Assembly (NCBI GenBank): GCA_003058495.1
Contig: QBVC01000019.1
Span: forward strand, 124,001-188,000
DNA length: 64,000 nucleotides
Direction: 5' to 3'
From: a gamma proteobacterium symbiont of Ctena orbiculata
GTDB taxonomy: Bacteria; Pseudomonadota; Gammaproteobacteria; Chromatiales; Chromatiaceae
Shown: positions 36,107 to 50,110 of the stretch, piece after piece
Layout: each line of letters opens with the position of its first letter
Position numbering within the stretch: the stretch's first letter is position 1
Translations under genes and position numbers: made by a program
Notes under the pieces: model-generated
Database searches by the model: none
The model's input: only the letters and a program-made list of their open reading frames with translations
Told to the model about the DNA's origin: nothing

Positions 36107-36760
36107 GTGACAGCTGCATCCACGCCCTCCTCCTCCGTCGCCTACGAAGCGCGCTCCCTGCAGTGCATTCGCGACGACCGGATACTATTCGAGGATCTGA
36201 GCTTCAGCATCAATCCGGGCCAGGCATTGGTTTTGGAGGGGCGCAACGGCAGCGGAAAAACCTCACTGTTGAGGATCCTCTGCGGGATACGCCTGCCGGA
36301 ATCGGGAGAGCTGCTGTGGGAGGGTGCGGACATCTTCAAACTGGGGCCTGAATTTCACGAGCATATCGCCTACCTGGGCCACAAAGACGGATCCAAACTC
36401 GACCTGACCCCTTTGGAAAACCTGCGTATCGCCCGCGGACTGGGCAAGGCACAGGAGGGTATCGACCTGGAAGATGCCCTGGACCAGGTCGGCCTCTACG
36501 GTTTCGAGGATATTCCGACACGCAATCTCTCAGCGGGCCAACAGCGCCGCCTTGCGATCGCGCGACTATTGATTACCGATGCGAGGCTATGGATCCTGGA
36601 CGAGCCGTTCACCTCCCTCGACCGTAAAGGCATTGAGCATATGGAGCGCCTGTTCGAGGGACATCTCAACCGCGGTGGCATGGCTGCGATGACCACCCAC
36701 CACCGGATCGGCTTCAAGGAAGATATTCAACTGGTACGAATAAACCTGTCGGAACGATGA
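36107..36760 (+). CDS. ccmA: CcmA heme exporter ATPase
   Basis: ATP-binding subunit of the CcmABCD complex that releases holo-CcmE during cytochrome c maturation. The 217-residue protein begins at a GTG. It has Walker A GRNGSGKTS, signature LSAGQQRRLAIARLL, Walker B LWILDEPFTSLD and the CcmA-typical TTHH switch. It overlaps ccmB by 4 bases and opens the operon. Confidence 0.95.
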   Translation: MTAASTPSSSVAYEARSLQCIRDDRILFEDLSFSINPGQALVLEGRNGSGKTSLLRILCGIRLPESGELLWEGADIFKLGPEFHEHIAYLGHKDGSKLDLTPLENLRIARGLGKAQEGIDLEDALDQVGLYGFEDIPTRNLSAGQQRRLAIARLLITDARLWILDEPFTSLDRKGIEHMERLFEGHLNRGGMAAMTTHHRIGFKEDIQLVRINLSER

Positions 36761-37440
36761 GCACCCTATCTCTCACAAGCGCTTTCAGCCTGCTGCTAAA
36801 AAGGGACTTGGTTCTCGCCTACCGCCGGCGCGCGGAACTGGTCAACCCGATGCTCTTTTTCGTCCTGGTTACGGCCATGTTCCCGCTGGGCATCGGCAAT
36901 GACGCCAAGCTGATCGAGGCCGTCGGCCCGGGGGTCATCTGGGTTGCCGCCCTCCTCGCCGCCCTGCTCTCACTCGATAGCATGTTCCGCTCCGACTACG
37001 ATGACGGCTCGTTGGAGCAGTTCATGCTGAGCGCCCACCCGGTCTCCATCCTGGTGCTGGCGAAGATTCTGGCCCACTGGCTGGTCACCGGCCTCCCCCT
37101 TTTCATCGTCGCGCCCCTGCTCGCGGTGCTGCTGAATATTCCCGCATCCGCGATCCCCACCCTGATGCTGACCCTGATCCTGGGCACCCCGGTGCTCAGC
37201 CTGATCGGTTCCGTCGGTGTCGCCCTGACCGTGGGACTGCGCCGCGGCGGCGTTATACTTTCACTGCTGGTGCTGCCCCTCTTCGTGCCGGTATTGATCT
37301 TTGCCACGGATGCTGTAAAAACTGCAATTGTCGGCATACCGACGACGGCGCAACTCTCCATCCTGTCCGCCATGCTGGTTGGTTCCCTGGTGTTGGCGCC
37401 GATGGCGACTGCCGCTTCATTGAGAATCAGTTTGAGTTGA
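36757..37440 (+). CDS. ccmB: CcmB heme exporter permease
   Basis: Inner-membrane subunit of CcmABCD. The 227-residue protein has six hydrophobic spans, the N-terminal LLLKRDLVLAYRRRAELVNPMLFFVLV and the VLAKILAHWLVTGLPL region typical of CcmB. Full length. It ends one base before the ccmC start. Confidence 0.95.
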   Translation: MSTLSLTSAFSLLLKRDLVLAYRRRAELVNPMLFFVLVTAMFPLGIGNDAKLIEAVGPGVIWVAALLAALLSLDSMFRSDYDDGSLEQFMLSAHPVSILVLAKILAHWLVTGLPLFIVAPLLAVLLNIPASAIPTLMLTLILGTPVLSLIGSVGVALTVGLRRGGVILSLLVLPLFVPVLIFATDAVKTAIVGIPTTAQLSILSAMLVGSLVLAPMATAASLRISLS

Positions 37441-37441
37441 T

Positions 37442-38188
37442 ATGATCATTCGCTTTTTTCATCAAATGGGTTCGCCGCGCTATTTCTATAATGTAGCGGG
37501 CAAGATGATCCCCTGGTTTATGGTCGGGTTTCTGATCACCCTGGTGCTGGGCCTCTACAACGGTCTGTTCGTCGCCCCACCCGACTATCAGCAGGGCGAG
37601 AGCTACCGCATCATCTATATTCACGTGCCCGCCGCCTGGATGTCGATGTTCATCTACGTGGTGATGGCGGTCTCCGGCCTGATCAGTCTGGTCTGGCGCA
37701 TCAAGATGACGGAGATCATCGTCATCAGCAGCGCCACCGTGGGGGCCTCGTTCACCTTTCTGGCCCTCGCCACCGGCTCGCTCTGGGGCAAGCCGATGTG
37801 GGGAACCTGGTGGGTATGGGATGCACGGCTGACCTCCGAATTGCTGCTGCTGTTTCTCTACCTCGGCATCATCGCGCTGCACAGCGCCATCGAGGACAAG
37901 AGGGTGGCGGCCCGCGCGGTCTCGATCCTGGCCCTGGTCGGGGTGGTCAACATCCCCGTCATTCACTATTCGGTCGAGTGGTGGAACACCCTGCACCAGC
38001 CTGCAACGATTACAAAATTCGACAAACCCTCGATGGATATGAGTATGCTGATTCCGCTGCTAACCATGGCCATCTCATTTAAACTTTACTATGGCGCTGT
38101 GGTCTTAATGCGCGCGCGCGCGGAAATCGTCGAGCGAGAACGCAACTCCCGCTGGGTGCAGGAGCTGGTTGAAGAGGAGGCGAAATGA
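37442..38188 (+). CDS. ccmC: CcmC heme-handling protein
   Basis: Delivers heme to CcmE in the periplasm. The 248-residue protein has six spans and the tryptophan-rich motif WGKPMWGTWWVWDARLTSE, with flanking His residues (IYIHVPAAW, VIHYSVEWWNTLHQ) that ligate heme. It overlaps ccmD by 4 bases. Confidence 0.96.
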   Translation: MIIRFFHQMGSPRYFYNVAGKMIPWFMVGFLITLVLGLYNGLFVAPPDYQQGESYRIIYIHVPAAWMSMFIYVVMAVSGLISLVWRIKMTEIIVISSATVGASFTFLALATGSLWGKPMWGTWWVWDARLTSELLLLFLYLGIIALHSAIEDKRVAARAVSILALVGVVNIPVIHYSVEWWNTLHQPATITKFDKPSMDMSMLIPLLTMAISFKLYYGAVVLMRARAEIVERERNSRWVQELVEEEAK

Positions 38189-38352
38189 GCGAATTCCTCG
38201 CCATGGGTGGATACGCCGTCTACGTCTGGCCCTCCTTTCTGCTGGCGCTGATCGTCCTGGTTGCCAATGTGGTGGCCCCCATGCGGCAGCGCAAGCGAGT
38301 ATTAACCGATATCGCCCGAAAACTACGTCGGGCCAGGAAAGAACAGAGATGA
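38185..38352 (+). CDS. ccmD: CcmD heme exporter small subunit
   Basis: A 55-residue protein beginning MSEFLAMGGYAVYVWPSF, with a single membrane helix (LLALIVLVANVVAP) and a basic C-terminus (MRQRKRVLTDIARKLRRARK), the standard CcmD form. It supports the interaction of CcmE with CcmABC. It overlaps ccmC by 4 bases at its start and ccmE by 4 bases at its end. Confidence 0.93.
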   Translation: MSEFLAMGGYAVYVWPSFLLALIVLVANVVAPMRQRKRVLTDIARKLRRARKEQR

Positions 38353-38810
38353 ACCCCATACGCAAAAAACGACTCACCCTGATCGGCCTGATGGTTGCAG
38401 GTATCGCTGTCGCCACCTGGCTGGCGCTCAACGCCTTCGACGAGAATCTGATGTTCTTCTTCTCGCCTACCGAAGTGGCCGAGGGCAAGGCACCCACCGC
38501 CCACCCGTTTCGCATCGGGGGCCTGGTCGAGGTCGACAGCGTGAAGCGCAAACCCGACGGCCTGACCACCGCCTTCTCGCTCACCGATAACGCCAAGGCG
38601 GTCACCGTGGAGTATACCGGCATCCTGCCCGACCTGTTCCGCGAGGGCCAGGGCATAGTCGCCATGGGACAGTTGAACGAGTCGGGTATCTTCATCGCCA
38701 GCGAGGTGCTCGCCAAGCATGACGAGAACTATATGCCACCCGAGGTGGCGGCTTCCCTGAAGACCGCCCATGACGACGGGGTGAAGAATATGCAGTCGAG
38801 AGTCCAATGA
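38349..38810 (+). CDS. ccmE: CcmE periplasmic heme chaperone
   Basis: Carries heme covalently on a histidine for transfer to apocytochromes. The 153-residue protein from ATG 38349 has an N-terminal anchor (LTLIGLMVAGIAVATWLAL) and an OB-fold. The heme-binding His is in EVLAKHDENYMPPEV, near residue 126. The upstream frame extension lies inside ccmD and is rejected. Confidence 0.96.
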   Translation: MNPIRKKRLTLIGLMVAGIAVATWLALNAFDENLMFFFSPTEVAEGKAPTAHPFRIGGLVEVDSVKRKPDGLTTAFSLTDNAKAVTVEYTGILPDLFREGQGIVAMGQLNESGIFIASEVLAKHDENYMPPEVAASLKTAHDDGVKNMQSRVQ

Positions 38811-40804
38811 TTCCCGAACTCGGTCACTTCGCGCTGATTCTCGCCCTCTGCCTGGCGGTCACCCAGGCGGTCGTGCCCCTGGTCGGCTCCTATACCCGCA
38901 CCGCCTCGTGGATGGCGGCATCGCGCTCCCTGGCCTGGGGGCAGTTCGTGTTCCTCGGCATTTCGCTGATCATTCTGACCAACGCCTTTCTGAGCAACGA
39001 CTTTTCCGTGATCTACGTGGCCCAGCACGGCAACACCAAGCTGCCCGATATCTACAAGATATCCGCGGTCTGGGGGGCCCATGAAGGCTCGCTCCTGTTA
39101 TGGGCCTTTATGCTCGCCAGCTGGAGCGTGGCGATCGCCGTTTTCAGCCGCAACCTGCCCCTGGAGATGGTATCCCGGGTGCTCTCGGTGATGGGTATGA
39201 TCAGCATCGGTTTTCTGCTCTTCATGCTGCTCACTTCAAATCCCTTTGACCGGACCTTCCCCGCGCCCCTCGAGGGGGGCGAGTTGAATCCCATGCTCCA
39301 GGATCCCGGTCTGGCGATCCATCCGCCCATGCTCTACATGGGCTATGTGGGCTTTTCCGTCGCCTTCGCCTTCGCCATCGCCGCCCTGCTGGGCGGGCGC
39401 CTCGACGCCTCCTGGGCACGCTGGTCGCGCCCCTGGACGACCATCGCCTGGGTCTTTCTCACCCTGGGCATCGCCCTCGGAAGCTGGTGGGCCTATTATG
39501 AGCTGGGTTGGGGCGGATGGTGGTTCTGGGATCCGGTGGAGAACGCCTCTTTCATGCCCTGGCTGGTGGGCACCGCGCTGATCCACTCCCTGGCGGTTAC
39601 CGAAAAGCGCGGCGCCTTCAAGAGCTGGACCGTGCTGCTCGCGATCTCCGCCTTCTCCCTGAGCCTGCTCGGCACCTTCCTGGTGCGTTCCGGGGTGCTC
39701 ACCTCGGTCCACTCCTTCGCCTCCGATCCGGCGCGGGGTATCTTCATCCTCGCCTTCCTGCTGATCGTCATCGGCGGCTCCCTGTTCCTCTACACCTGGC
39801 GCGCCCCCTATATCTCCGGCGGCGGCCGCTTCGATCTGATATCCCGGGAGACATTTCTCCTGGGTAACAACCTCCTGCTATCGGTGTTCGCGGCCCTGGT
39901 GCTCCTCGGCACCCTCGCCCCGCTCATCTATGACGCCCTCGATCTGGGCAAGATCTCGGTGGGCTTTCCCTGGTTCAACAAGATGTTCCTGCTCACCACC
40001 CCCTTTCTCGCCCTGCTCATGGGTATGGGCACCCTGGCCCGCTGGAAACACGCCGAACCCTCCCAGTTGGTGAAACAGCTACGGGCCGCTTTCGTCATCA
40101 GCCTGCTGTTCGGCCTGCTCAGCCTGCTGCCGATGTTCTCCGGCGGCAACTGGCTGGTAGGACTCGGCATGGGATTGGCGATGTGGATTGCCACCTCCCA
40201 CGTGGTCAACCTCCGCGATCGGCTGAAGCACAAGCAGGGATTTTCCGGCTTCTGGCTCGACCTGAAAAGCGGCGGACGCAGCTATTACGGCATGATCCTC
40301 GCCCATCTGGGGGTCGCGGTATTCATCGTCGGGGTGACCATGGTGAGCAACTACGGCATCGAACAGGATGTCCGCATGAGTCCTGGGGACGTGAGTGAGA
40401 TAGCGGGCCACAGCTTCAGGTTTGAAGGGGTCAAACGCACCCCGGGACCCAACTACAATGCCCATCGCGGTACTTTCCAGGTGAGCAAGGACGGCGAACA
40501 CCTGATCACCCTGGAGCCGGAGAAGCGTACCTATTTCGTACAGACCAAACCGATGACGGAGGCCGCCATCGATTGGGGAATCACCCGGGACCTCTATGTC
40601 TCCCTGGGCGAACCGCTTGGGGGCGGCGATTGGAGTCTTCGGCTCTACTACAAACCCTATGTGCGCTGGATCTGGCTGGGCGGGCTGTTGATGGGCCTGG
40701 GCGGCATCCTATCGGTTACCGATCGGCGCTACCGCACCGCCAGGGTGAAATCGGCTCAGCGGGTCGGTGGCGGCAGTACCGCAGCGGCCGCTTCCGGGAG
40801 TTGA
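38807..40804 (+). CDS. ccmF: CcmF cytochrome c heme lyase subunit
   Basis: Large polytopic subunit that reduces and ligates heme to apocytochrome c. The 665-residue protein carries the WWD signature GWGGWWFWDPVENASFMPWL, about 14 spans, and conserved His residues (e.g. in LAIHPPMLYMGYVG). Full length. It overlaps ccmE by 4 bases; ccmG follows after 6 bases. Confidence 0.96.
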   Translation: MIPELGHFALILALCLAVTQAVVPLVGSYTRTASWMAASRSLAWGQFVFLGISLIILTNAFLSNDFSVIYVAQHGNTKLPDIYKISAVWGAHEGSLLLWAFMLASWSVAIAVFSRNLPLEMVSRVLSVMGMISIGFLLFMLLTSNPFDRTFPAPLEGGELNPMLQDPGLAIHPPMLYMGYVGFSVAFAFAIAALLGGRLDASWARWSRPWTTIAWVFLTLGIALGSWWAYYELGWGGWWFWDPVENASFMPWLVGTALIHSLAVTEKRGAFKSWTVLLAISAFSLSLLGTFLVRSGVLTSVHSFASDPARGIFILAFLLIVIGGSLFLYTWRAPYISGGGRFDLISRETFLLGNNLLLSVFAALVLLGTLAPLIYDALDLGKISVGFPWFNKMFLLTTPFLALLMGMGTLARWKHAEPSQLVKQLRAAFVISLLFGLLSLLPMFSGGNWLVGLGMGLAMWIATSHVVNLRDRLKHKQGFSGFWLDLKSGGRSYYGMILAHLGVAVFIVGVTMVSNYGIEQDVRMSPGDVSEIAGHSFRFEGVKRTPGPNYNAHRGTFQVSKDGEHLITLEPEKRTYFVQTKPMTEAAIDWGITRDLYVSLGEPLGGGDWSLRLYYKPYVRWIWLGGLLMGLGGILSVTDRRYRTARVKSAQRVGGGSTAAAASGS

Positions 40805-40810
40805 CCACTG

Positions 40811-41356
40811 ATGAATCGCTATTTACGTTACTCCATCCCGCTGCTGGTATTCGTGCTGATCGCATCTTTTCTGGCCTGGGGTCTCAAGCGGGACTACAAC
40901 CCGAGACATATCCCCTCCCCGCTCATTGGGAAGTCGATACCCGACTTTGAACTGCCAACCGTGGAGAGTCCCGACACATTGGTAAAGACCAGCGATCTCC
41001 AGGGCAGAGTCTATCTCCTCAACGTATGGGCGACCTGGTGCGTCTCCTGTCGCGCCGAACACGAGACCCTGGTCCACCTCTCGCGCTCCGGCAAGGTCGA
41101 AATCGTCGGCCTCAACTGGAAGGACGAGCGGGACAAGGCCCGGGCCTGGCTGAGCCAGCTCGGGGATCCCTACACCATCAATATCTTTGACAAGAAGGGA
41201 CGCACCGCCATCGACCTGGGGGTATATGGCGCGCCGGAGACCTTTCTGGTGGACAGCAAGGGCGTCATCCACTATAAGCACGCCGGCCCGATGACCATGG
41301 AGCTGTTCAATGAAACGCTGCTCCCCCTGATTGAAGACTTGAAGCCTCGAGGATAA
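40811..41356 (+). CDS. ccmG: CcmG/DsbE periplasmic thiol-disulfide oxidoreductase
   Basis: Membrane-anchored thioredoxin-like protein that keeps CXXCH cysteines reduced. The 181-residue protein has an N-terminal anchor (SIPLLVFVLIASFLAWGL), the active site WATWCVSCRAEH and the DsbE-type VYGAPETFLVDSKG loop with a cis-proline region. Standard position between ccmF and ccmH. Confidence 0.95.
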   Translation: MNRYLRYSIPLLVFVLIASFLAWGLKRDYNPRHIPSPLIGKSIPDFELPTVESPDTLVKTSDLQGRVYLLNVWATWCVSCRAEHETLVHLSRSGKVEIVGLNWKDERDKARAWLSQLGDPYTINIFDKKGRTAIDLGVYGAPETFLVDSKGVIHYKHAGPMTMELFNETLLPLIEDLKPRG

Positions 41357-41361
41357 GCGAA

Positions 41362-41844
41362 GTGCGCCATCTTCTCCTGACCCTGATCCTGCTATTGAAT
41401 CTCCCGCCTGGCCTCCATGCCGCAACGCTGGCCGAGTACACCTTCGATGAACCGGACAAGGCAGAGGATTTCCGCGACATCATCGAAGAGATGCGCTGCC
41501 TGGTCTGTCAGAATGAATCCCTCGCCGGATCCAATGCCGAACTCGCCATCGATCTGCGCAACGAGATCTACGAGATGATGAAGAGCGGCCAGGAGAAACA
41601 GGACATCATCAATTTCATGGTTGCCCGCTACGGTGATTTCGTTCTCTACAGTCCGCCCCTCAAACCCACGACCTATCCGATATGGTTTGGTCCCCTGATC
41701 GTGTTCCTGATCGGCGGTGTGGTGCTTTTCCGCATACTCAGACGCAAAAACGTTACCCGGGAGACAGAACTCTCTGCAGAAGAGGAACAACGACTGAATC
41801 GGCTGTTAAACCAGTCGAACGACCAGAGAGACGCAGATCAATGA
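41362..41844 (+). CDS. ccmH: CcmH cytochrome c maturation protein
   Basis: Thiol-handling subunit of the heme lyase complex. The 160-residue protein starts at GTG 41362 and has a signal peptide (LLLTLILLLNLPPGLHA). The redox motif MRCLVCQNESLAGSNA follows, then one membrane span (IWFGPLIVFLIGGVVLFRIL). It corresponds to the short CcmH/CcmL form; the TPR part is the separate ccmI gene, which it overlaps by 4 bases. Confidence 0.95.
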   Translation: MRHLLLTLILLLNLPPGLHAATLAEYTFDEPDKAEDFRDIIEEMRCLVCQNESLAGSNAELAIDLRNEIYEMMKSGQEKQDIINFMVARYGDFVLYSPPLKPTTYPIWFGPLIVFLIGGVVLFRILRRKNVTRETELSAEEEQRLNRLLNQSNDQRDADQ

Positions 41845-43139
41845 CCCTATTCTGGATGATTATTGTCGGGTTCACGTTCCTGGCCATGGCCTTTGTCGCA
41901 CTGCCGCTGATGCGCAAGCAGGTCAAAAACAGCATCACCTCCGATGAACTCAACCTGGCCGTTTTCAAGCAGCAACTCGCCGAGCTCGACAACGATCTGG
42001 AATCCGGCATTCTCGACCAGGCCCGCTATGAAGCGGCGCGCAGGGATCTTGAAAAAGAGCTGCTGACGGATATATCCGACAAACCGCAACAACCCGATAG
42101 CAAGGCCAGGGGCCAGCTCATGGCACTCACCGCACTGGCGATACCGGTGGCCGCCCTGGTGATCTATCAGCTGCTCGGCTCCCCGGAGATCATCCAGCGT
42201 CTGGCCGGCCAGCCCGCGACCCTGCCCGCCGCCTCCAGCCAGGCAGGGTCTCGAGCCCCCAATATGGAGAACATGCCGCCGATGGATGAGTTGGTGAAAC
42301 GGCTTGCAGCGAAAATGGAGCAGCAGCCTGACAACCAGGAGGGGTGGATCATGCTGGGGCGCAGCTACATGGCGCTGAACGACCGCTCGGCGGCGATTAA
42401 TGCCTTCGAGCGTGCCATGGAGATCGGCGACGAAAATATCGGCCTCCTGCTGGCCTATGCCGAGGCCATCGCCTCCGGCAGCGGAAACGACTTTACCGGC
42501 CGCGCGGCGCCGATGGTCGAAAAGGCGTTCGAACTTGAACCGAACGATCCCAATGTCCTCTGGATCGCCGGCATACTCGCCTATCAGCGCACGCAGTACC
42601 AGGATGCCATAAACCGCTGGTCGACACTGCGGGGGATGTTGAAACCGCAGAGCGCGGAACTCGAATCGGTGAACAGCGCCCTGGACGACGCCCGAGCCCA
42701 GTTGGGACTGCCCCCGGAAGAGCCGGAACTGCCGAGCATCGCACAAGCCAAGGCACCGGCGCCGGTGGTTGAAAAGGTTGTCGAGAATAGGGGCAAGTCG
42801 CTGAGAGTCGAAATTTCGCTCTCACCGGATATGGAGCAGAAGGCAAAACCGGACGACCTGTTGTTCATCTATGCCAAGGCGATGAGCGGACCGCCCATGC
42901 CGCTGGCGGCGGTGCGGAAAAAGGTCAGCGACCTCCCCCTCGCTATCAACCTGGATGACAGCATGGCGATGATGCCGCAGATGAGGCTCTCTCAACACGC
43001 CAAGGTATCGGTGGGCGCACGTATCTCCCTCTCGGGAAGCCCCACTGCCCAGAGCGGCGACCTCGAGGGCGAAACCAGTGCGGTCAGCCCGGGTCAGGCG
43101 GAAATCGTAAAGGTGGTGATCGATTCGGTTCACCCTTGA
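41841..43139 (+). CDS. ccmI: CcmI apocytochrome c chaperone (TPR)
   Basis: The 432-residue protein from ATG 41841 has two N-terminal membrane segments (MTLFWMIIVGFTFLAMAFVA and about residues 92-112) with a cytoplasmic loop between. A periplasmic TPR domain follows (EGWIMLGRSYMALNDRSAAINAFERA) and then a C-terminal beta domain (RVEISLSPDMEQ). CcmI presents apocytochrome c to CcmFH. It closes the ccm operon. Confidence 0.94.
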   Translation: MTLFWMIIVGFTFLAMAFVALPLMRKQVKNSITSDELNLAVFKQQLAELDNDLESGILDQARYEAARRDLEKELLTDISDKPQQPDSKARGQLMALTALAIPVAALVIYQLLGSPEIIQRLAGQPATLPAASSQAGSRAPNMENMPPMDELVKRLAAKMEQQPDNQEGWIMLGRSYMALNDRSAAINAFERAMEIGDENIGLLLAYAEAIASGSGNDFTGRAAPMVEKAFELEPNDPNVLWIAGILAYQRTQYQDAINRWSTLRGMLKPQSAELESVNSALDDARAQLGLPPEEPELPSIAQAKAPAPVVEKVVENRGKSLRVEISLSPDMEQKAKPDDLLFIYAKAMSGPPMPLAAVRKKVSDLPLAINLDDSMAMMPQMRLSQHAKVSVGARISLSGSPTAQSGDLEGETSAVSPGQAEIVKVVIDSVHP

Positions 43140-45732: not shown

Positions 45733-45746
45733 TTGATCTAGATCAA
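45733..45746. promoter_or_regulatory. Perfect FNR-type palindrome upstream of the octaheme operon
   Basis: TTGATCTAGATCAA is an exact match to the FNR/Dnr consensus TTGAT-N4-ATCAA. With a -10-like TTATAG at 45771-45776 the start point would fall near 45783, so the site is centred near -43, close to the class II activating position. This suggests activation at low oxygen or by an NO-responsive FNR-family regulator. The regulator cannot be named from this window. Confidence 0.7.
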
Positions 45747-46026
45747 GGCAGTCCCCTCCCCGAATCGTTGTTATAGGCCTGTGTAAGCATAAAACGAACA
45801 GGGTTTTACTGACTGGATAACTAAGTGAGACCATGCAGTCCCCATATCAATAACAATCTGGGGTTGGGGGAAAAGTCGTAACCATCCTTTCTTTATAATT
45901 TGGCTTGCTCAATCAATTTGGGGGGACTCATCCGTTGCGCTTGTGCTGCGTCATTTCATTTTCGTACGAATCACCTGTGCCACCGATGAATCTCTTCCTT
46001 ACTGTCAACCCATTAAGGAGGGAGCT

Positions 46027-47520
46027 ATGAAATGCTTCGGTAATGGTCGATTCAGCGCAATATTGGGGAGTGTTGCAGCGGGAATCACGCTGCTGCTGCA
46101 AGTCTCGACGGTAGATGCTGCAAGACCGTCTGGCGAGATTGGTAAAGATTGGGGTAACCCGAAAGGCCACGAATGTGTCGAGTGTCACTGGATGGAAGAT
46201 CCAGGTCTGACCATGGAGTGGAACAACAGCCAGCATGGACAGAGTGGCGTCAACTGCCTCGACTGTCACGAGGCCAAAGCGGAAGACAAGGATGGATTCG
46301 AACATGAGGGACAGCGCATCTCCATCATCGTGACGCCTAAGGACTGCTCCAAGTGTCACTCCGTTGAATTCGAAGAGATGGACGGCTCCCACCACTCCAA
46401 AGGCGGCCAGATCCTGGCATCCCTCGATAACCTGCTCGGTGAAGTGGTCGGTGGTCCGGCGGCGGTGAATGCCGGTTGCCGTCAGTGTCACGGTTCCAAG
46501 GTCGAAATCGGCGATGACGGCAAACCGCTGCCGACCACCTGGCCCAACACCGGTATCGGCCGCCTCAATCCTGACGGTTCCGCCGGCTCCTGTACCGCCT
46601 GTCACGGTCGCCATCGTTTCTCCAAGGCCCAGGCCCGCACACCTGACACCTGCGGCAAGTGTCACGTCGGTCCCGACCATCCGCAGATCGAGGTCTACAA
46701 CGAGTCCAAGCACGGCATCATCTATCGCGCCAAGGTCGATGAGATGAACATGGAGTCGGACAAATGGGTCGCCGGTGTTGACTACTCTGCAGCTCCCACC
46801 TGTGCCACCTGCCACATGAGCGCCGGCGGTAAAGAGGGCAAGACCCATAACGTGGGTGACCGTATCTCCTGGACCCTGCGTCCGCCGATCTCCCAGAAGA
46901 TCAACCTGGTGCGTCTGGAAAACGGTCAGGAATTTGACGTTAAGGAGGGTAAGAAAATACCCAAGGTCGGCGACAAGGCCAAGGGCTCTACTGTTATCGA
47001 AGTGGTTACCTGGAAAGAGCGCCGCAAAAAGATGCAGGAGGTCTGCAAGGCCTGCCACAGCGACAGTGTCATCAACGGTCACTACAACCAGTTCGACAAC
47101 GTGGTGGAGCTCTACAACGAGAAATTCGCCAAACCGATCGCAGCTGTGATGGGTGAGTTGAAAAAGAACGGCTATATCACCAAGGCCCCGTTTGACGACA
47201 AGATCGAGTGGACCTGGTGGGAGATCTGGCATCACGAAGGTCGTCGTGCCCGTCACGGCGCCTCCATGAGTGGTCCCGACTATACCTGGTGGCATGGTAT
47301 CTATGACGTTGCCAAGCATACCTACATGAAGTGGATACCTGAGCTGAAGGATGTCTCAATGAAGAAAGACGGCAACGAGGACTTCGCCAACAAGATGCTG
47401 GACAAGTACTTCAAGCCGATCGACGGCCACACCTGGTACTTCGAGGGCATGAGCAAAGAAGCCATCGAGAAGGTGCGCAAAGGGTTTGAAGAGCGTTACG
47501 GTAAAGGTGCGCTTAAGTAG
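46027..47520 (+). CDS. Octaheme c-type cytochrome, hydroxylamine oxidoreductase (HAO) family
   Basis: A 497-residue exported protein with an N-terminal signal segment (ILGSVAAGITLLLQVSTVDA) and eight CXXCH motifs at residues 50, 77, 107, 151, 189, 209, 259 and 340. The spacing and segments such as WNNSQHGQSGVNCLDCHEA and VTPKDCSKCHSVEFEEMDGS are typical of the HAO family. A PDYTWWHG segment with Tyr419 lies where an HAO heme-crosslinking tyrosine might be, but this cannot be settled without alignment. It could oxidise hydroxylamine or, like the reductive HAO of Campylobacter relatives, reduce nitrite or hydroxylamine. Start ATG 46027 has a strong Shine-Dalgarno. First gene of a group with flavocytochrome c genes. 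Confidence 0.9.
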   Translation: MKCFGNGRFSAILGSVAAGITLLLQVSTVDAARPSGEIGKDWGNPKGHECVECHWMEDPGLTMEWNNSQHGQSGVNCLDCHEAKAEDKDGFEHEGQRISIIVTPKDCSKCHSVEFEEMDGSHHSKGGQILASLDNLLGEVVGGPAAVNAGCRQCHGSKVEIGDDGKPLPTTWPNTGIGRLNPDGSAGSCTACHGRHRFSKAQARTPDTCGKCHVGPDHPQIEVYNESKHGIIYRAKVDEMNMESDKWVAGVDYSAAPTCATCHMSAGGKEGKTHNVGDRISWTLRPPISQKINLVRLENGQEFDVKEGKKIPKVGDKAKGSTVIEVVTWKERRKKMQEVCKACHSDSVINGHYNQFDNVVELYNEKFAKPIAAVMGELKKNGYITKAPFDDKIEWTWWEIWHHEGRRARHGASMSGPDYTWWHGIYDVAKHTYMKWIPELKDVSMKKDGNEDFANKMLDKYFKPIDGHTWYFEGMSKEAIEKVRKGFEERYGKGALK

Positions 47521-47538
47521 TTCCCTTTAACACCATGT

Positions 47539-47576
47539 ACCCCTTCAGGCTTAACCGCCTGAGGGGGTCTTTTTTT
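47539..47576 (+). terminator. Hairpin and T-run between the octaheme gene and the TPR gene
   Basis: A GC-rich stem (CCCCTTCAGGC paired with GCCTGAGGGG, loop TTAACC) followed by seven T residues. It looks like a rho-independent terminator or partial attenuator about 20 bases after the octaheme stop. It may make the octaheme transcript more abundant than the downstream genes. Confidence 0.8.
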
Positions 47577-47601
47577 CATCTTCCTGTAGCAGAGGTCATT
47601 C

Positions 47602-48048
47602 ATGGGGAGACTACTCATCTATCTGCTGACGATCTCACTCAGCCTGGGTGGACTCACGTCGGTAATGGCACAAGAGAGTGTCGAACAGTTGATCGCGGAT
47701 GCACGGCGTTTATCCGAATCGGGCAACCTGCCTGAAGCACACGCTATACTGATTAAGGCGGTCGAGACAGATCCGCAGTCCTCATTCGCCCATACCCGGC
47801 TTGGGGGGGTGGAACTGTTGCAACGCAACTATCAGTCCGGCATCAAGCGTTTTCAACAGGCGATCATGCTGGACCGCACAAATGCGGATGCCTTCGTCGG
47901 CCTGGCTGTCGCCTACCTGCATCTGGGCCGCTACGCCCTGGCCAGGGAGGCACTGAAAGAAGCGGAGCAACTGGGTCCGTCGAAACAGCAAGATATCGAT
48001 AAAGTACTGGCCTGGCTCGATCAAAGATCCGGAAAACAGGGACATTGA
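47602..48048 (+). CDS. Periplasmic TPR-repeat protein
   Basis: A 148-residue protein with a signal peptide (LLIYLLTISLSLGGLTSVMA) and about three TPR units (ESGNLPEAHAILIKAVETDP, LLQRNYQSGIKRFQQAIMLD, LHLGRYALAREALKEAEQL). TPR proteins act as scaffolds or assembly helpers. Lying between the octaheme cytochrome and the diheme cytochrome, it may assist assembly or docking of the redox partners. No specific family is recognised. Confidence 0.82.
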   Translation: MGRLLIYLLTISLSLGGLTSVMAQESVEQLIADARRLSESGNLPEAHAILIKAVETDPQSSFAHTRLGGVELLQRNYQSGIKRFQQAIMLDRTNADAFVGLAVAYLHLGRYALAREALKEAEQLGPSKQQDIDKVLAWLDQRSGKQGH

Positions 48049-48074
48049 GTCACGGTCCACCTGAGGAGATATTC

Positions 48075-48743
48075 ATGAAAATAAACAGAAAACTGTTAAA
48101 GACACTGATCGTCGGCGTGTTTTTTGGCTGGCTGGTGTCGAGCTGTACCACCACCGACAGTGCAATGAAAAAAGAGGCCGCCGCGCCTGCCGCAAAAGCT
48201 GCGGCAGAGATGGCTCCCGCGAAGCCAAAAGGTGTCCGATCCCCCTCCATGCTGGCCAATACCTGCGCCGGCTGCCATGGCACCGACGGTGCCAGTGCGG
48301 GTGATGCGATGCCCATCATCGGCGGCCTGGAGAAGGAGTATCTGCAGCTCGTGCTCGCCGAGTACAAGAGCGGCGAGCGTGATTCTACCATTATGGGTCG
48401 TATCGCCAAGGGCTACTCTGATAACGAACTGAAGGCGATCGCCTCCTATATCGCCGACAAACCTTGGGTTTCCAGCACAGCCAAGGCTGACAAAAAGCTC
48501 GCGGCGATAGGCAAAAAGATCCATCAAGAGAAGTGCAAAACATGCCATGAGGATGGCGGCCGGGTTCAGGAGGACGATGCTCCCCGTCTGGCAGGACAGT
48601 GGCCGGACTTCACCATGATCTACCTGAAGGACTGCCACAAAAAAGGCCGACGTTGTCAGCCGAGAAAAATGGGTAAACGAGTCTCCCAACTCTCAGAAAA
48701 TGAGTTGCGGGCCATGGCTCACTACTATCTGAGCGAGAAATAA
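48075..48743 (+). CDS. Diheme cytochrome c lipoprotein, FccA-like
   Basis: A 222-residue protein with lipobox LVSSC (Cys24), an Ala/Lys-rich linker, and two cytochrome c domains with CAGCH (residues 64-68) and CKTCH (154-158). Paired repeats (LQLVLAEYKSGERDSTIMGRIAKG and its C-terminal counterpart) match the FccA/SoxF-type diheme cytochromes. FccA normally has a plain signal peptide, so the lipid anchor is unusual. Two extra cysteines (187, 194) lie in the second domain. Start ATG 48075 is 26 bases after the TPR stop; the FccB-like gene follows after 12 bases, implying a flavocytochrome c complex. Confidence 0.88.
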   Translation: MKINRKLLKTLIVGVFFGWLVSSCTTTDSAMKKEAAAPAAKAAAEMAPAKPKGVRSPSMLANTCAGCHGTDGASAGDAMPIIGGLEKEYLQLVLAEYKSGERDSTIMGRIAKGYSDNELKAIASYIADKPWVSSTAKADKKLAAIGKKIHQEKCKTCHEDGGRVQEDDAPRLAGQWPDFTMIYLKDCHKKGRRCQPRKMGKRVSQLSENELRAMAHYYLSEK

Positions 48744-48755
48744 GGGGGGAGCACA

Positions 48756-50042
48756 ATGGCTAAACTGACACGCAGAAATTTTATCAAGGCTGGCGGCGCC
48801 TGTGCGGCGCTTGGTGCCGCGACGGCATTCAGCCCTGCTTCATTCGCTAAAGGCGCCAAAGGCCGCGTGATTGTAATCGGCGGTGGTTATGGCGGTTCCA
48901 TCGCGGCCAAGTATATTAAAAAGGCCGATCCCTCGATCGATGTCACATTGATAGAGAAAAACACCCAGTATGTCTCCTGTCCGCTCAGTAATGAGGTTCT
49001 CGGAGGGGAGCGCGACATCGGCAGCATCACCTTCAACTACAAGGCCATGAGCCAGAACCACAAGGTCAAGGTGGTGCATGACGAGGTGGTGGAGATCGAT
49101 GCGGCCAACCATAGCGTAAAGGTTGCCGGTGGAAATCAATATCAGTATGACAAACTTGTTGTTTCACCGGGTATCGACTTCCGTTTCGAGAAGATCGAAG
49201 GCCATAGCGCCGCGGTGGCCGAGAAGATTCCCCACGCCTGGAAGGCGGGACCCCAAACCACTCTTCTGCACAAGCAGTTGATGGCGATGAAGGACGGCGG
49301 TGTCTGCTATATCGCCGCCCCGCCCAACCCCTTCCGTTGTCCGCCGGGACCCTATGAGCGTGCAGCGCAGATAGCCCACTACTTCAAGCGGCACAAGCCC
49401 AAATCGAAGGTCATCATTCTCGATGCCAAGGACAAGTTCTCCAAGCAGGGCCTCTTCATGCAGGGCTACAAGAAGTTCTACGGCGATACCATTGAGTGGG
49501 TCAGCGGCGCCAACGGCGGTATCATCGAAGCGATCGATGCGGACAACATGACCCTGGTGGGTCAGGTAGACGAGTACAAGGGTGATGTCCTCAACGTTAT
49601 CCCCGCACAGAAGGCGGGTAAGATCGCGCAAATGGCTGGCTTGACCGACGATTCCGGCTGGTGTCCGGTCAATCAGGGCACCTTCGAATCTAAAATCCAT
49701 AAGGATATCTATGTCATCGGCGACGCCAGCATTGCCGGCAAGATGCCCAAGTCGGGTTACGCCGCAAATTCACAGGGCAAGGTCTGCGCCGCTGCAATCG
49801 TTGCCACCCTGAACGGCGAGCCGCCGGGTGAACCATCCTACGTGAACACCTGCTACAGCATCATCTCTCCCGAATGGGGCATCTCGGTGGCCGCGGTCTA
49901 TCAGCTGGTCGACGGCAAGATTGTGGGTGTTAAGGGTGCGGGCGGCCTCTCCCCCATGGATGCCTCTGCGGAGACGAGGGCCGTCGAAGTGCAATATGCG
50001 CGCAGCTGGTTCAAGAACATCACCTCTGACATGTTTACCTAA
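48756..50042 (+). CDS. FccB-like flavocytochrome c sulfide dehydrogenase flavoprotein
   Basis: A 428-residue Tat-exported flavoprotein (signal TRRNFIKAGG) with FAD motif VIVIGGGYGGSIAAKYIKK. Cys75 in YVSCPLSNEV corresponds to the residue that holds FAD covalently in flavocytochrome c. Cys195 (PFRCPPGPYERA) and Cys366 (NTCYSI) fit the redox disulfide that attacks sulfide. YVIGDASIAGKMPKSGYAANSQ is the second FAD-binding segment. It should oxidise sulfide to zero-valent sulfur and pass electrons to the diheme subunit. Orphan FccB-type proteins exist with other substrates, so the substrate is inferred from intact residues. Confidence 0.9.
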   Translation: MAKLTRRNFIKAGGACAALGAATAFSPASFAKGAKGRVIVIGGGYGGSIAAKYIKKADPSIDVTLIEKNTQYVSCPLSNEVLGGERDIGSITFNYKAMSQNHKVKVVHDEVVEIDAANHSVKVAGGNQYQYDKLVVSPGIDFRFEKIEGHSAAVAEKIPHAWKAGPQTTLLHKQLMAMKDGGVCYIAAPPNPFRCPPGPYERAAQIAHYFKRHKPKSKVIILDAKDKFSKQGLFMQGYKKFYGDTIEWVSGANGGIIEAIDADNMTLVGQVDEYKGDVLNVIPAQKAGKIAQMAGLTDDSGWCPVNQGTFESKIHKDIYVIGDASIAGKMPKSGYAANSQGKVCAAAIVATLNGEPPGEPSYVNTCYSIISPEWGISVAAVYQLVDGKIVGVKGAGGLSPMDASAETRAVEVQYARSWFKNITSDMFT

Positions 50043-50085: not shown

Positions 50086-50110
50086 AGCGCCGCTATGCGG
50101 CGCTTTTTTT
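50086..50110 (+). terminator. Rho-independent terminator of the octaheme/flavocytochrome operon
   Basis: Stem AGCGCCGC paired with GCGGCGCT around a TAT loop, followed by a run of T residues at 50104-50111. Located about 45 bases after the FccB-like stop. Confidence 0.88.

What the first reader, a model, noticed from the sequence alone, without database searches (positions are those of the whole stretch)
45733..50042. FNR-boxed operon joining an HAO-like octaheme cytochrome to a flavocytochrome c sulfide dehydrogenase pair
Seen: eight CXXCH motifs in an HAO-type protein, followed on the same strand by a TPR protein, a diheme FccA-like lipoprotein and an FccB-like flavoprotein with intact Cys75, Cys195 and Cys366. 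A perfect TTGAT-N4-ATCAA site lies upstream. Known: FccAB oxidises sulfide; HAO-family octahemes oxidise hydroxylamine or reduce nitrite. Inference: this could be a periplasmic unit that moves sulfide electrons to nitrite or hydroxylamine reduction, or that detoxifies hydroxylamine, under low oxygen. I do not know of a described system with this gene order.
Basis: partly seen in the sequence, partly recalled or inferred. Interest (0 to 1): 0.8.

Follow-up and report, generated by a model that had tools for sequence, protein, structure and literature searches.

The report
Sulfide dehydrogenase beside octaheme nitrogen-oxide reductase
In a clam-symbiont bacterium, genes for a sulfide-oxidising enzyme sit next to an eight-heme protein that looks like a nitrite or hydroxylamine reductase, and the same set recurs in other sulfur bacteria, in some beside nitrate-sensing genes, which suggests that sulfide electrons are used to reduce nitrite in the outer cell compartment.

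Summary
An exact FNR-type site (45733-45746), an octaheme HAO-superfamily gene (start 46027), a periplasmic TPR gene, a diheme FccA lipoprotein and an FccB with its three key cysteines lie in this order. Correction: a terminator-like hairpin (47539-47568) separates the octaheme gene from TPR-fccAB, so a single operon is not shown. The genome is of the Ca. Thiodiazotropha type.

Of 55 octaheme loci read, 49 have TPR next (three misses are contig ends), 24 have FccAB within 8 kb, in three arrangements, and 48 have an FNR-type box upstream (shuffles: 0.09). In some purple sulfur bacteria NarXL, Crp/Fnr, NapA or NnrS stand there too. The octaheme lacks NeHAO's cross-link tyrosine (Trp instead) but keeps the Asp-His pair, so it is probably reductive.

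Best reading: a nitrite (NO, hydroxylamine) reductase fed with sulfide electrons by FccAB. The nitrogen-oxide context is well supported; the electron route and the product are inferred, and 30 of 55 loci have no FccAB beside the octaheme. New variant of a known kind (reverse-HURM-like reductase with a sulfide-dehydrogenase donor).

The parts
45733..45746 (.). FNR/DNR-type palindrome TTGATCTAGATCAA, centre about 287 nt before the octaheme start codon
45772..45777 (+). possible -10 element (TATAGG, 4 of 6); spacing roughly that of a class II FNR promoter (spacing rule recalled); similar in the Thiodiazotropha relatives, not consistent in other genera
   Evidence: inference
46027..47520 (+). octaheme c-type cytochrome of the HAO superfamily, 497 aa, signal peptide by sight, 8 CXXCH; D217-H218 = NeHAO D267-H268; W421 at the place of cross-link Y467
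47539..47568 (+). terminator-like hairpin (12 pairs; -24.1 kcal/mol for the 42-nt segment folded) followed by CTTTTTTTC, between octaheme and TPR genes
47602..48048 (+). TPR protein with a signal peptide by sight, 148 aa; found next to the octaheme gene in 49 of 55 loci
48075..48743 (+). diheme FccA-like cytochrome subunit with a lipobox (VSSC) and an Ala/Lys/Pro-rich linker
48756..50042 (+). FccB-like flavoprotein of flavocytochrome c sulfide dehydrogenase, Tat signal, Cys75/195/366
50086..50104 (+). terminator-like hairpin with T-run after fccB

Best explanation
The locus makes a periplasmic, anoxia-induced nitrogen-oxide reductase with its own sulfide-oxidising electron input. FccB oxidises sulfide, passes electrons to the diheme FccA, and from there, directly or through a small soluble cytochrome, to the octaheme cytochrome, which reduces nitrite (and/or NO, hydroxylamine). 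The TPR protein most likely helps the multiheme protein mature or dock. An FNR-family regulator switches the octaheme on; the hairpin after it probably makes the octaheme transcript more abundant than the TPR-fccAB part. Shown: gene identities, box, hairpin, conservation, neighbourhood, loss of the cross-link tyrosine. Inferred: reductive direction, substrate, electron route, TPR role, attenuation.
For: Sequence: HAO superfamily, best solved relative 4qo5; NeHAO D267-H268 kept and Y467 replaced by Trp in 23 of 23 group-A rows. Linkage: TPR next to it in 49 of 55 loci; FccAB within 8 kb in 24 of 55, in three arrangements; 26 of 27 family genomes with an FccB of 583 bits or more (cut chosen after seeing the list) also carry this octaheme, against 22 of 167 of the rest (the genomes are related, so the p-value overstates). 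Context: NarXL in 6 genomes within about 10 kb, NapA in 4 genomes by its model and 1 by tblastn within about 12 kb, a Crp/Fnr-type gene in 11 fetched loci, NnrS after fccAB in 4. FNR-type box in 48 of 55 loci; the same box precedes nirS and an fnr-like gene in the own genome. 24 of 48 octaheme-positive genomes have Nap/Nar but no cytochrome cd1 match over 200 bits, and 47 of 48 have no strong NrfA match. Relative BOGUAY_0691, 44% identical, also without the tyrosine, was measured as a weak nitrite reductase (passages of PMC6449678; located here).
Against: No complete FccAB beside 31 of 55 octaheme loci (one has a remnant; some flanks are short), so FccAB is not obligatory. Nap/Nar is not enriched: 37 of 48 octaheme-positive against 18 of 26 hand-picked negative genomes, and 9 of 48 positives show no NapA/NarG above cut-off or in large pieces. 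The own genome also has NirS, so the octaheme would not be its only nitrite reductase. BOGUAY_0691 is reported to oxidise hydroxylamine and hydrazine too, without the tyrosine, so the tyrosine rule is not strict. The box is missing in 7 of 55 loci. A hairpin splits the transcript. NirK and NirB were not searched. No activity or expression data.
Confidence: 0.5

Rival explanations
1. The octaheme is a nitrogen-oxide reductase fed by the general periplasmic cytochrome or quinol pool; FccAB is only co-regulated and feeds the same pool, with no dedicated electron path.
For: Octaheme-TPR without FccAB in beta-proteobacterial bins, a Magnetococcales bin and genus g42; hairpin between the two parts; the FccBs beside the octaheme are not one clade (label needs 8 changes on the tree).
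Against: FccAB stands beside the octaheme in three arrangements, and in the window's gene order in at least four families (f1, f16, f63, f132; Thiothrix may be one of these), more than shared regulation needs.
Confidence: 0.25
2. The octaheme detoxifies hydroxylamine or NO formed during nitrate respiration, by oxidation or reduction, and FccAB keeps it in the right redox state.
For: HAO superfamily; Asp-His pair kept; NnrS after fccAB in some relatives; BOGUAY_0691 is reported to oxidise hydroxylamine (PMC6449678 passages).
Against: No cross-link tyrosine; an electron-donating partner (FccAB) fits reduction, not oxidation.
Confidence: 0.12
3. The octaheme acts on sulfur compounds (polysulfide, sulfite, tetrathionate) downstream of FccAB.
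For: The named genomes with FccAB beside it are sulfur bacteria (L207-L209 are unnamed); an octaheme plus cytochrome b561 in purple sulfur bacteria is reported as up-regulated by sulfide (passage of PMC6374484), though that description fits the tetrathionate-reductase-type octaheme seen in L035 better (my inference).
Against: NarXL, Nap, NnrS and FNR-type neighbourhood; octaheme-TPR without FccAB in four beta-proteobacterial loci (box in one of the four, L114) and in L110.
Confidence: 0.08
4. Chance or inertia: neighbouring but unrelated genes.
For: No FccAB or remnant beside 30 of 55 octaheme loci.
Against: With 1-8 FccB-like matches in the genomes that have any, chance proximity within 10 kb would be a few percent per locus (my estimate); observed 24 of 55 in three arrangements.
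Confidence: 0.05

Closest known systems
reverse-HURM / epsilon-Hao nitrite reduction (Nautilia profundicola HaoA with CycB/NapC; passages of PMC3701875)
   Same: octaheme HAO-superfamily protein without the cross-link tyrosine, nitrate-respiration context, proposed nitrite reduction in the periplasm
   Different: electron donor there is a NapC/CycB-type quinol dehydrogenase; here FccAB sulfide dehydrogenase and a TPR protein are beside the octaheme
Orange octaheme cytochrome BOGUAY_0691 of Beggiatoaceae (PMC6449678 passages and section 18)
   Same: related octaheme (44% identity), Asp-His pair, no cross-link tyrosine, sulfide- and nitrate-using host
   Different: separate clade; no TPR or FccAB beside it in the 13 kb read, of which only 1.6 kb lies downstream; Nap genes upstream according to the paper
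IhOCC of Ignicoccus hospitalis (PDB 4qo5; the name IhOCC is recalled)
   Same: best solved relative, matched in three stretches
   Different: His of the Asp-His pair is Val in the alignment; neighbourhood not checked
Nitrosomonas HAO (1fgj, 6m0p)
   Same: fold family by sequence, Asp267-His268 equivalents
   Different: Tyr467 cross-link residue missing here; HAO oxidises hydroxylamine
Flavocytochrome c sulfide dehydrogenase FccAB of Allochromatium vinosum (1fcd; organism recalled)
   Same: diheme FccA and FAD protein FccB with the three cysteines
   Different: lipobox on FccA in part of Thiodiazotropha; FccB on another branch; placed beside an octaheme

Membership tests
Hydroxylamine oxidoreductase proper (HAO, P460 type) | eight CXXCH hemes | tested here: met
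Hydroxylamine oxidoreductase proper (HAO, P460 type) | active-site Asp267-His268 equivalents | tested here: met
   D217-H218; the role of the pair is recalled
Hydroxylamine oxidoreductase proper (HAO, P460 type) | cross-link tyrosine Tyr467 | tested here: not met
   Trp421 aligns there
Reductive HAO-type octaheme (epsilon-Hao / reverse-HURM) | octaheme of the HAO superfamily without the tyrosine | tested here: met
Reductive HAO-type octaheme (epsilon-Hao / reverse-HURM) | NapC/CycB-type quinol dehydrogenase partner | tested here: not met
   none called within about 7 kb on either side in the window; NapC lies near some relatives' clusters and near another fccAB of the own genome (L074)
Reductive HAO-type octaheme (epsilon-Hao / reverse-HURM) | reduces nitrite to hydroxylamine or ammonium | not testable with these tools
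   needs biochemistry
Octaheme nitrite/tetrathionate reductase (ONR/OTR) | match to the tetrathionate-reductase octaheme family TIGR04315, or a CXXCK heme | tested here: not met
   no TIGR04315 hit, all eight motifs CXXCH; the other octaheme beside the paralog at G000:C2 does match it
Flavocytochrome c sulfide dehydrogenase (FccAB) | FccB FCSD domains, FAD-linking Cys and redox Cys pair | tested here: met
   cysteine roles recalled
Flavocytochrome c sulfide dehydrogenase (FccAB) | adjacent cytochrome subunit with two CXXCH | tested here: met
Flavocytochrome c sulfide dehydrogenase (FccAB) | sulfide oxidation activity | not testable with these tools
FNR-controlled operon | conserved FNR-type box upstream | tested here: met
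   48 of 55 loci
FNR-controlled operon | one transcript from octaheme to fccB | tested here: inconclusive
   terminator-like hairpin inside; no RNA data

The most novel reading that the evidence does not exclude
A dedicated periplasmic sulfide:nitrite oxidoreductase: FccAB hands sulfide electrons straight to a reductive HAO-type octaheme, coupling sulfide oxidation to nitrite reduction (possibly ammonification) outside the quinone pool, as a protection against both compounds in lucinid symbionts and in purple sulfur bacteria that have Nap but no strong NrfA or cd1-reductase match.
Probability: 0.33. Interest if true: 0.8.

Novelty: new variant of a known kind. Interest (0 to 1): 0.62.

Why it matters
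It would link the sulfur and nitrogen cycles in one periplasmic module, offer a candidate nitrite reductase for sulfur bacteria that have Nap or Nar but no cd1 reductase (24 of the 48 octaheme-positive genomes of the family) and, with one exception among the 48 (G151), no strong NrfA match (NirK and NirB not searched), and give flavocytochrome c, whose role is unclear because a knock-out oxidises sulfide at the same rate (passage of PMC10892978), a testable partner.

Tried and rejected
Structure prediction of the octaheme from 14 sequences gave mean pLDDT 55, so no fold search was run. A lipid anchor on FccA as a general feature was rejected: a lipobox placed like the window's is seen in the window, L036-L040 and L082, not in L041/L042 nor in most others (pattern hits in L068, L069, L086, L087 lie elsewhere or in other contexts; Thiothrix L098 has a Cys after a possible signal that the pattern misses). 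That the orange Beggiatoa protein is the same clade was tested by locating it with the paper's primers: it is a different clade. That octaheme presence follows Nap/Nar was not supported. A -10 element was similar only within the genus. Hairpin with T-run after the octaheme: 18 of 55 loci reach -17 kcal/mol or lower; no shuffle control was made for it. In the tree, rows L161, L215 and L217 are probably another multiheme frame of their locus (long branches, in L215/L217 another motif) and I disregard them; L079 was put in the TPR-linked group although no TPR was found beside it. Gene clusters from my simple gene caller were noisy in GC-rich genomes and adjacency was recounted by tblastn. A 69%-identical fragment in another family (G476) was not followed. 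NrfA: besides the strong match in G151, many genomes have matches of at most 30 bits, some over the family's low cut-off; I did not count these. Papers: searches gave none; others gave lists; I looked into 13 papers with find or one section (twelve gave passages, PMC6712303 held none of the terms). None of these passages describes this gene order, but most listed papers were not opened; Ferousi 2021 (not held), Haase 2017 and the original orange-protein paper were seen only as references.
Full report
What is there. The window holds, on the + strand, an exact FNR-type palindrome at 45733-45746, an octaheme gene whose ATG behind a ribosome-binding-like site is at 46027, a TPR gene, a diheme FccA gene and an FccB gene. 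Pfam and solved-structure searches give Multi-haem_cyto and 4qo5/1fgj for the octaheme, TPR families for the second, cytochrome c and 3vrd_A/1fcd_C for the third, FCSD domains and 5n1t/1fcd_A for the fourth. The three FccB cysteines align with those of 1fcd. Upstream lie genes that look like a ccm cluster and an EF-G-like gene (by sight).

Whose genome. The nearest named record (99% identity over the octaheme) is a gamma-proteobacterial symbiont of the lucinid clam Ctena orbiculata; Ca. Thiodiazotropha endoloripes and taylori follow at 94-95%. The window lies in a 4.5 Mb, 51-contig genome; that it is Ca. Thiodiazotropha or close kin is inferred from these hits.

Conservation. In 194 genomes of the family, 48 carry an octaheme of the window type (counted at over 600 bits, below which the next match has 495; list). 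I read 41 of these 48 with flanks, plus nine named loci and five loci from other families of the class, 55 in all. TPR follows in 49; of the six misses three are contig ends and three are one genus (L078-L080). FccAB lies within 8 kb in 24, and as a truncated remnant in one more (L072): twelve times in the window's order (the window, L036-L042, Thiothrix fructosivorans L098, and L207-L209 from three other families), nine times divergently (among them Thiocystis minor and violacea and Thiomargarita nelsonii), three times in other arrangements. Octaheme-TPR without FccAB occurs in four beta-proteobacterial loci, a Magnetococcales bin and genus g42, among others. The more distant octahemes L115-L167 (46-56% identity) show no TPR or FccAB beside them in the held flanks, some of which are short; nor do L204-L206 and L212-L217.

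Regulation. In a 440-nt stretch ending just inside the gene, 26 of 55 loci hold the exact box and 48 of 55 TTGAY-N4-RTCAA; 100 shuffles gave means of 0.01 and 0.09. The seven without are L050, L069, L070, L109, L111, L112, L113. In the own genome the exact box also precedes nirS and genes that by sight are fnr, a norE-like gene and a diheme cytochrome; of the 20 boxes read there, four (L218, L219, L221, L229) lie inside long reading frames with no gene start listed. A Crp/Fnr-type gene was called in 11 fetched loci.

Nitrogen context. In Thiocystis violacea the order is fccB, fccA (divergent), octaheme, TPR, narL, narX (opposite strand), crp/fnr, napA, then napC; Halochromatium glycolicum has octaheme, TPR, narL, narX, crp, napA; H. 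salexigens has octaheme, TPR, narL, narX, crp, fccA, fccB, nnrS (families). NarXL stands near the octaheme in six genomes in all (L053, L061, L064, L066, L070, L095). NarL passes its NCBIfam cut-off; the kinase's best hits are NarQ/NarX below their cut-offs. NapA is on the octaheme's contig within about 12 kb in four genomes by its model (G101, G151, G147, G081) and in one by tblastn at 52% (L209). Among 48 octaheme-positive genomes 37 have NapA or NarG above cut-off (two more have NapA in pieces), 15 a cytochrome cd1 match over 200 bits, 1 a strong NrfA match; 24 have Nap/Nar and no such cd1 match. Against an easy story: 18 of 26 hand-picked octaheme-negative genomes also have Nap/Nar, and NirK and NirB were not searched.

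Direction of the octaheme. The Nitrosomonas-type HAO of L186 was tied to 6m0p/1fgj residue by residue; the profile alignment puts Trp421 of the window protein at Tyr467. In one search, 23 of 23 group-A rows have Trp there; of the rows I keep, only the two true HAO rows L186 and L181 have Tyr. The NeHAO Asp267-His268 pair is kept in all 23, while the 50% paralog in the own genome has Asp-Ser. Papers seen in passages state that absence of the tyrosine is taken to favour reduction (PMC8940962; PMC3701875). The related orange Beggiatoa protein, found here with the paper's primers as L204, is 44% identical, has Gln at that place, and is reported as a weak nitrite reductase that also oxidises hydroxylamine and hydrazine (PMC6449678). 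So the direction is likely reductive, not proved.

FccB. In a quick tree of 38 FccB rows (24 linked to the octaheme, 12 not, 2 from the PDB) the window's protein sits with other octaheme-linked FccBs; Thiothrix, L208 and Thiomargarita FccBs fall on the A. vinosum side, and the linked rows are not one clade (8 changes of the label; shuffled mean 11.7; 8 of 500 shuffles as low). Several of the 12 unlinked rows come from genomes whose octaheme is on another contig or farther off. Two branch ends (5n1t, 1fcd) are long. 26 of 27 genomes with an FccB of 583 bits or more (cut chosen after seeing the list) carry the octaheme against 22 of 167 others, but the genomes are related. More than one pairing of an FccAB with this octaheme, or replacement, is suggested.

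Mechanism. I commit to sulfide electrons entering at FccB, moving through FccA to the octaheme, which reduces nitrite or a close nitrogen oxide; probability about 0.5. The potentials of sulfide and nitrite allow it (established knowledge). The TPR protein's role (maturation or docking) is a guess from its constancy and the NrfG precedent (recalled; NrfG only a weak hit).

Novelty. The parts are known; the combination was not seen in the ten paper searches made nor in the passages of the papers I looked into; this library lacks most subscription journals. I file it as a new variant of the reductive HAO-type (reverse-HURM-like) module.

Noticed in passing
own genome G000:C2:85651-89760 (locus L075): A second fccAB pair lies behind an exact FNR-type box (C2:89747) and a 669-aa protein with nine CXXCH and, by sight, a membrane part; another multiheme-FccAB pairing under the same kind of site.
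   Followed up: partly
own genome G000:C2:106138-111626 (locus L035): A 50%-identical octaheme paralog with Asp-Ser instead of Asp-His stands divergent to a cytochrome c554-like pentaheme, a TIGR04315 tetrathionate-reductase-type octaheme and a cytochrome-b-like gene.
   Followed up: partly
L204:9824-11359: The biochemically studied orange octaheme BOGUAY_0691 was identified in an unnamed Beggiatoaceae-family genome through the published primers, allowing comparison.
   Followed up: yes
own genome C45 (locus L234), C34 (L231), C35 (L233): Exact FNR-type boxes precede nirS and, by sight, an fnr-like regulator and a norE-like gene, outlining a denitrification regulon.
   Followed up: partly
L066:10845-12149, L069:8596-9759, L062, L086: NnrS gene right after fccAB in Halochromatium-type and related genomes.
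   Followed up: partly
window 36107-43139: Genes that look like cytochrome c maturation (ccm) genes about 3 kb upstream of the octaheme gene, kept in the genus (by sight).
   Followed up: no
G007:C1:193923-195203 (locus L173): A congener carries a further HAO-like octaheme type with Pro-His instead of Asp-His; the window's own genome had no match at that threshold.
   Followed up: no
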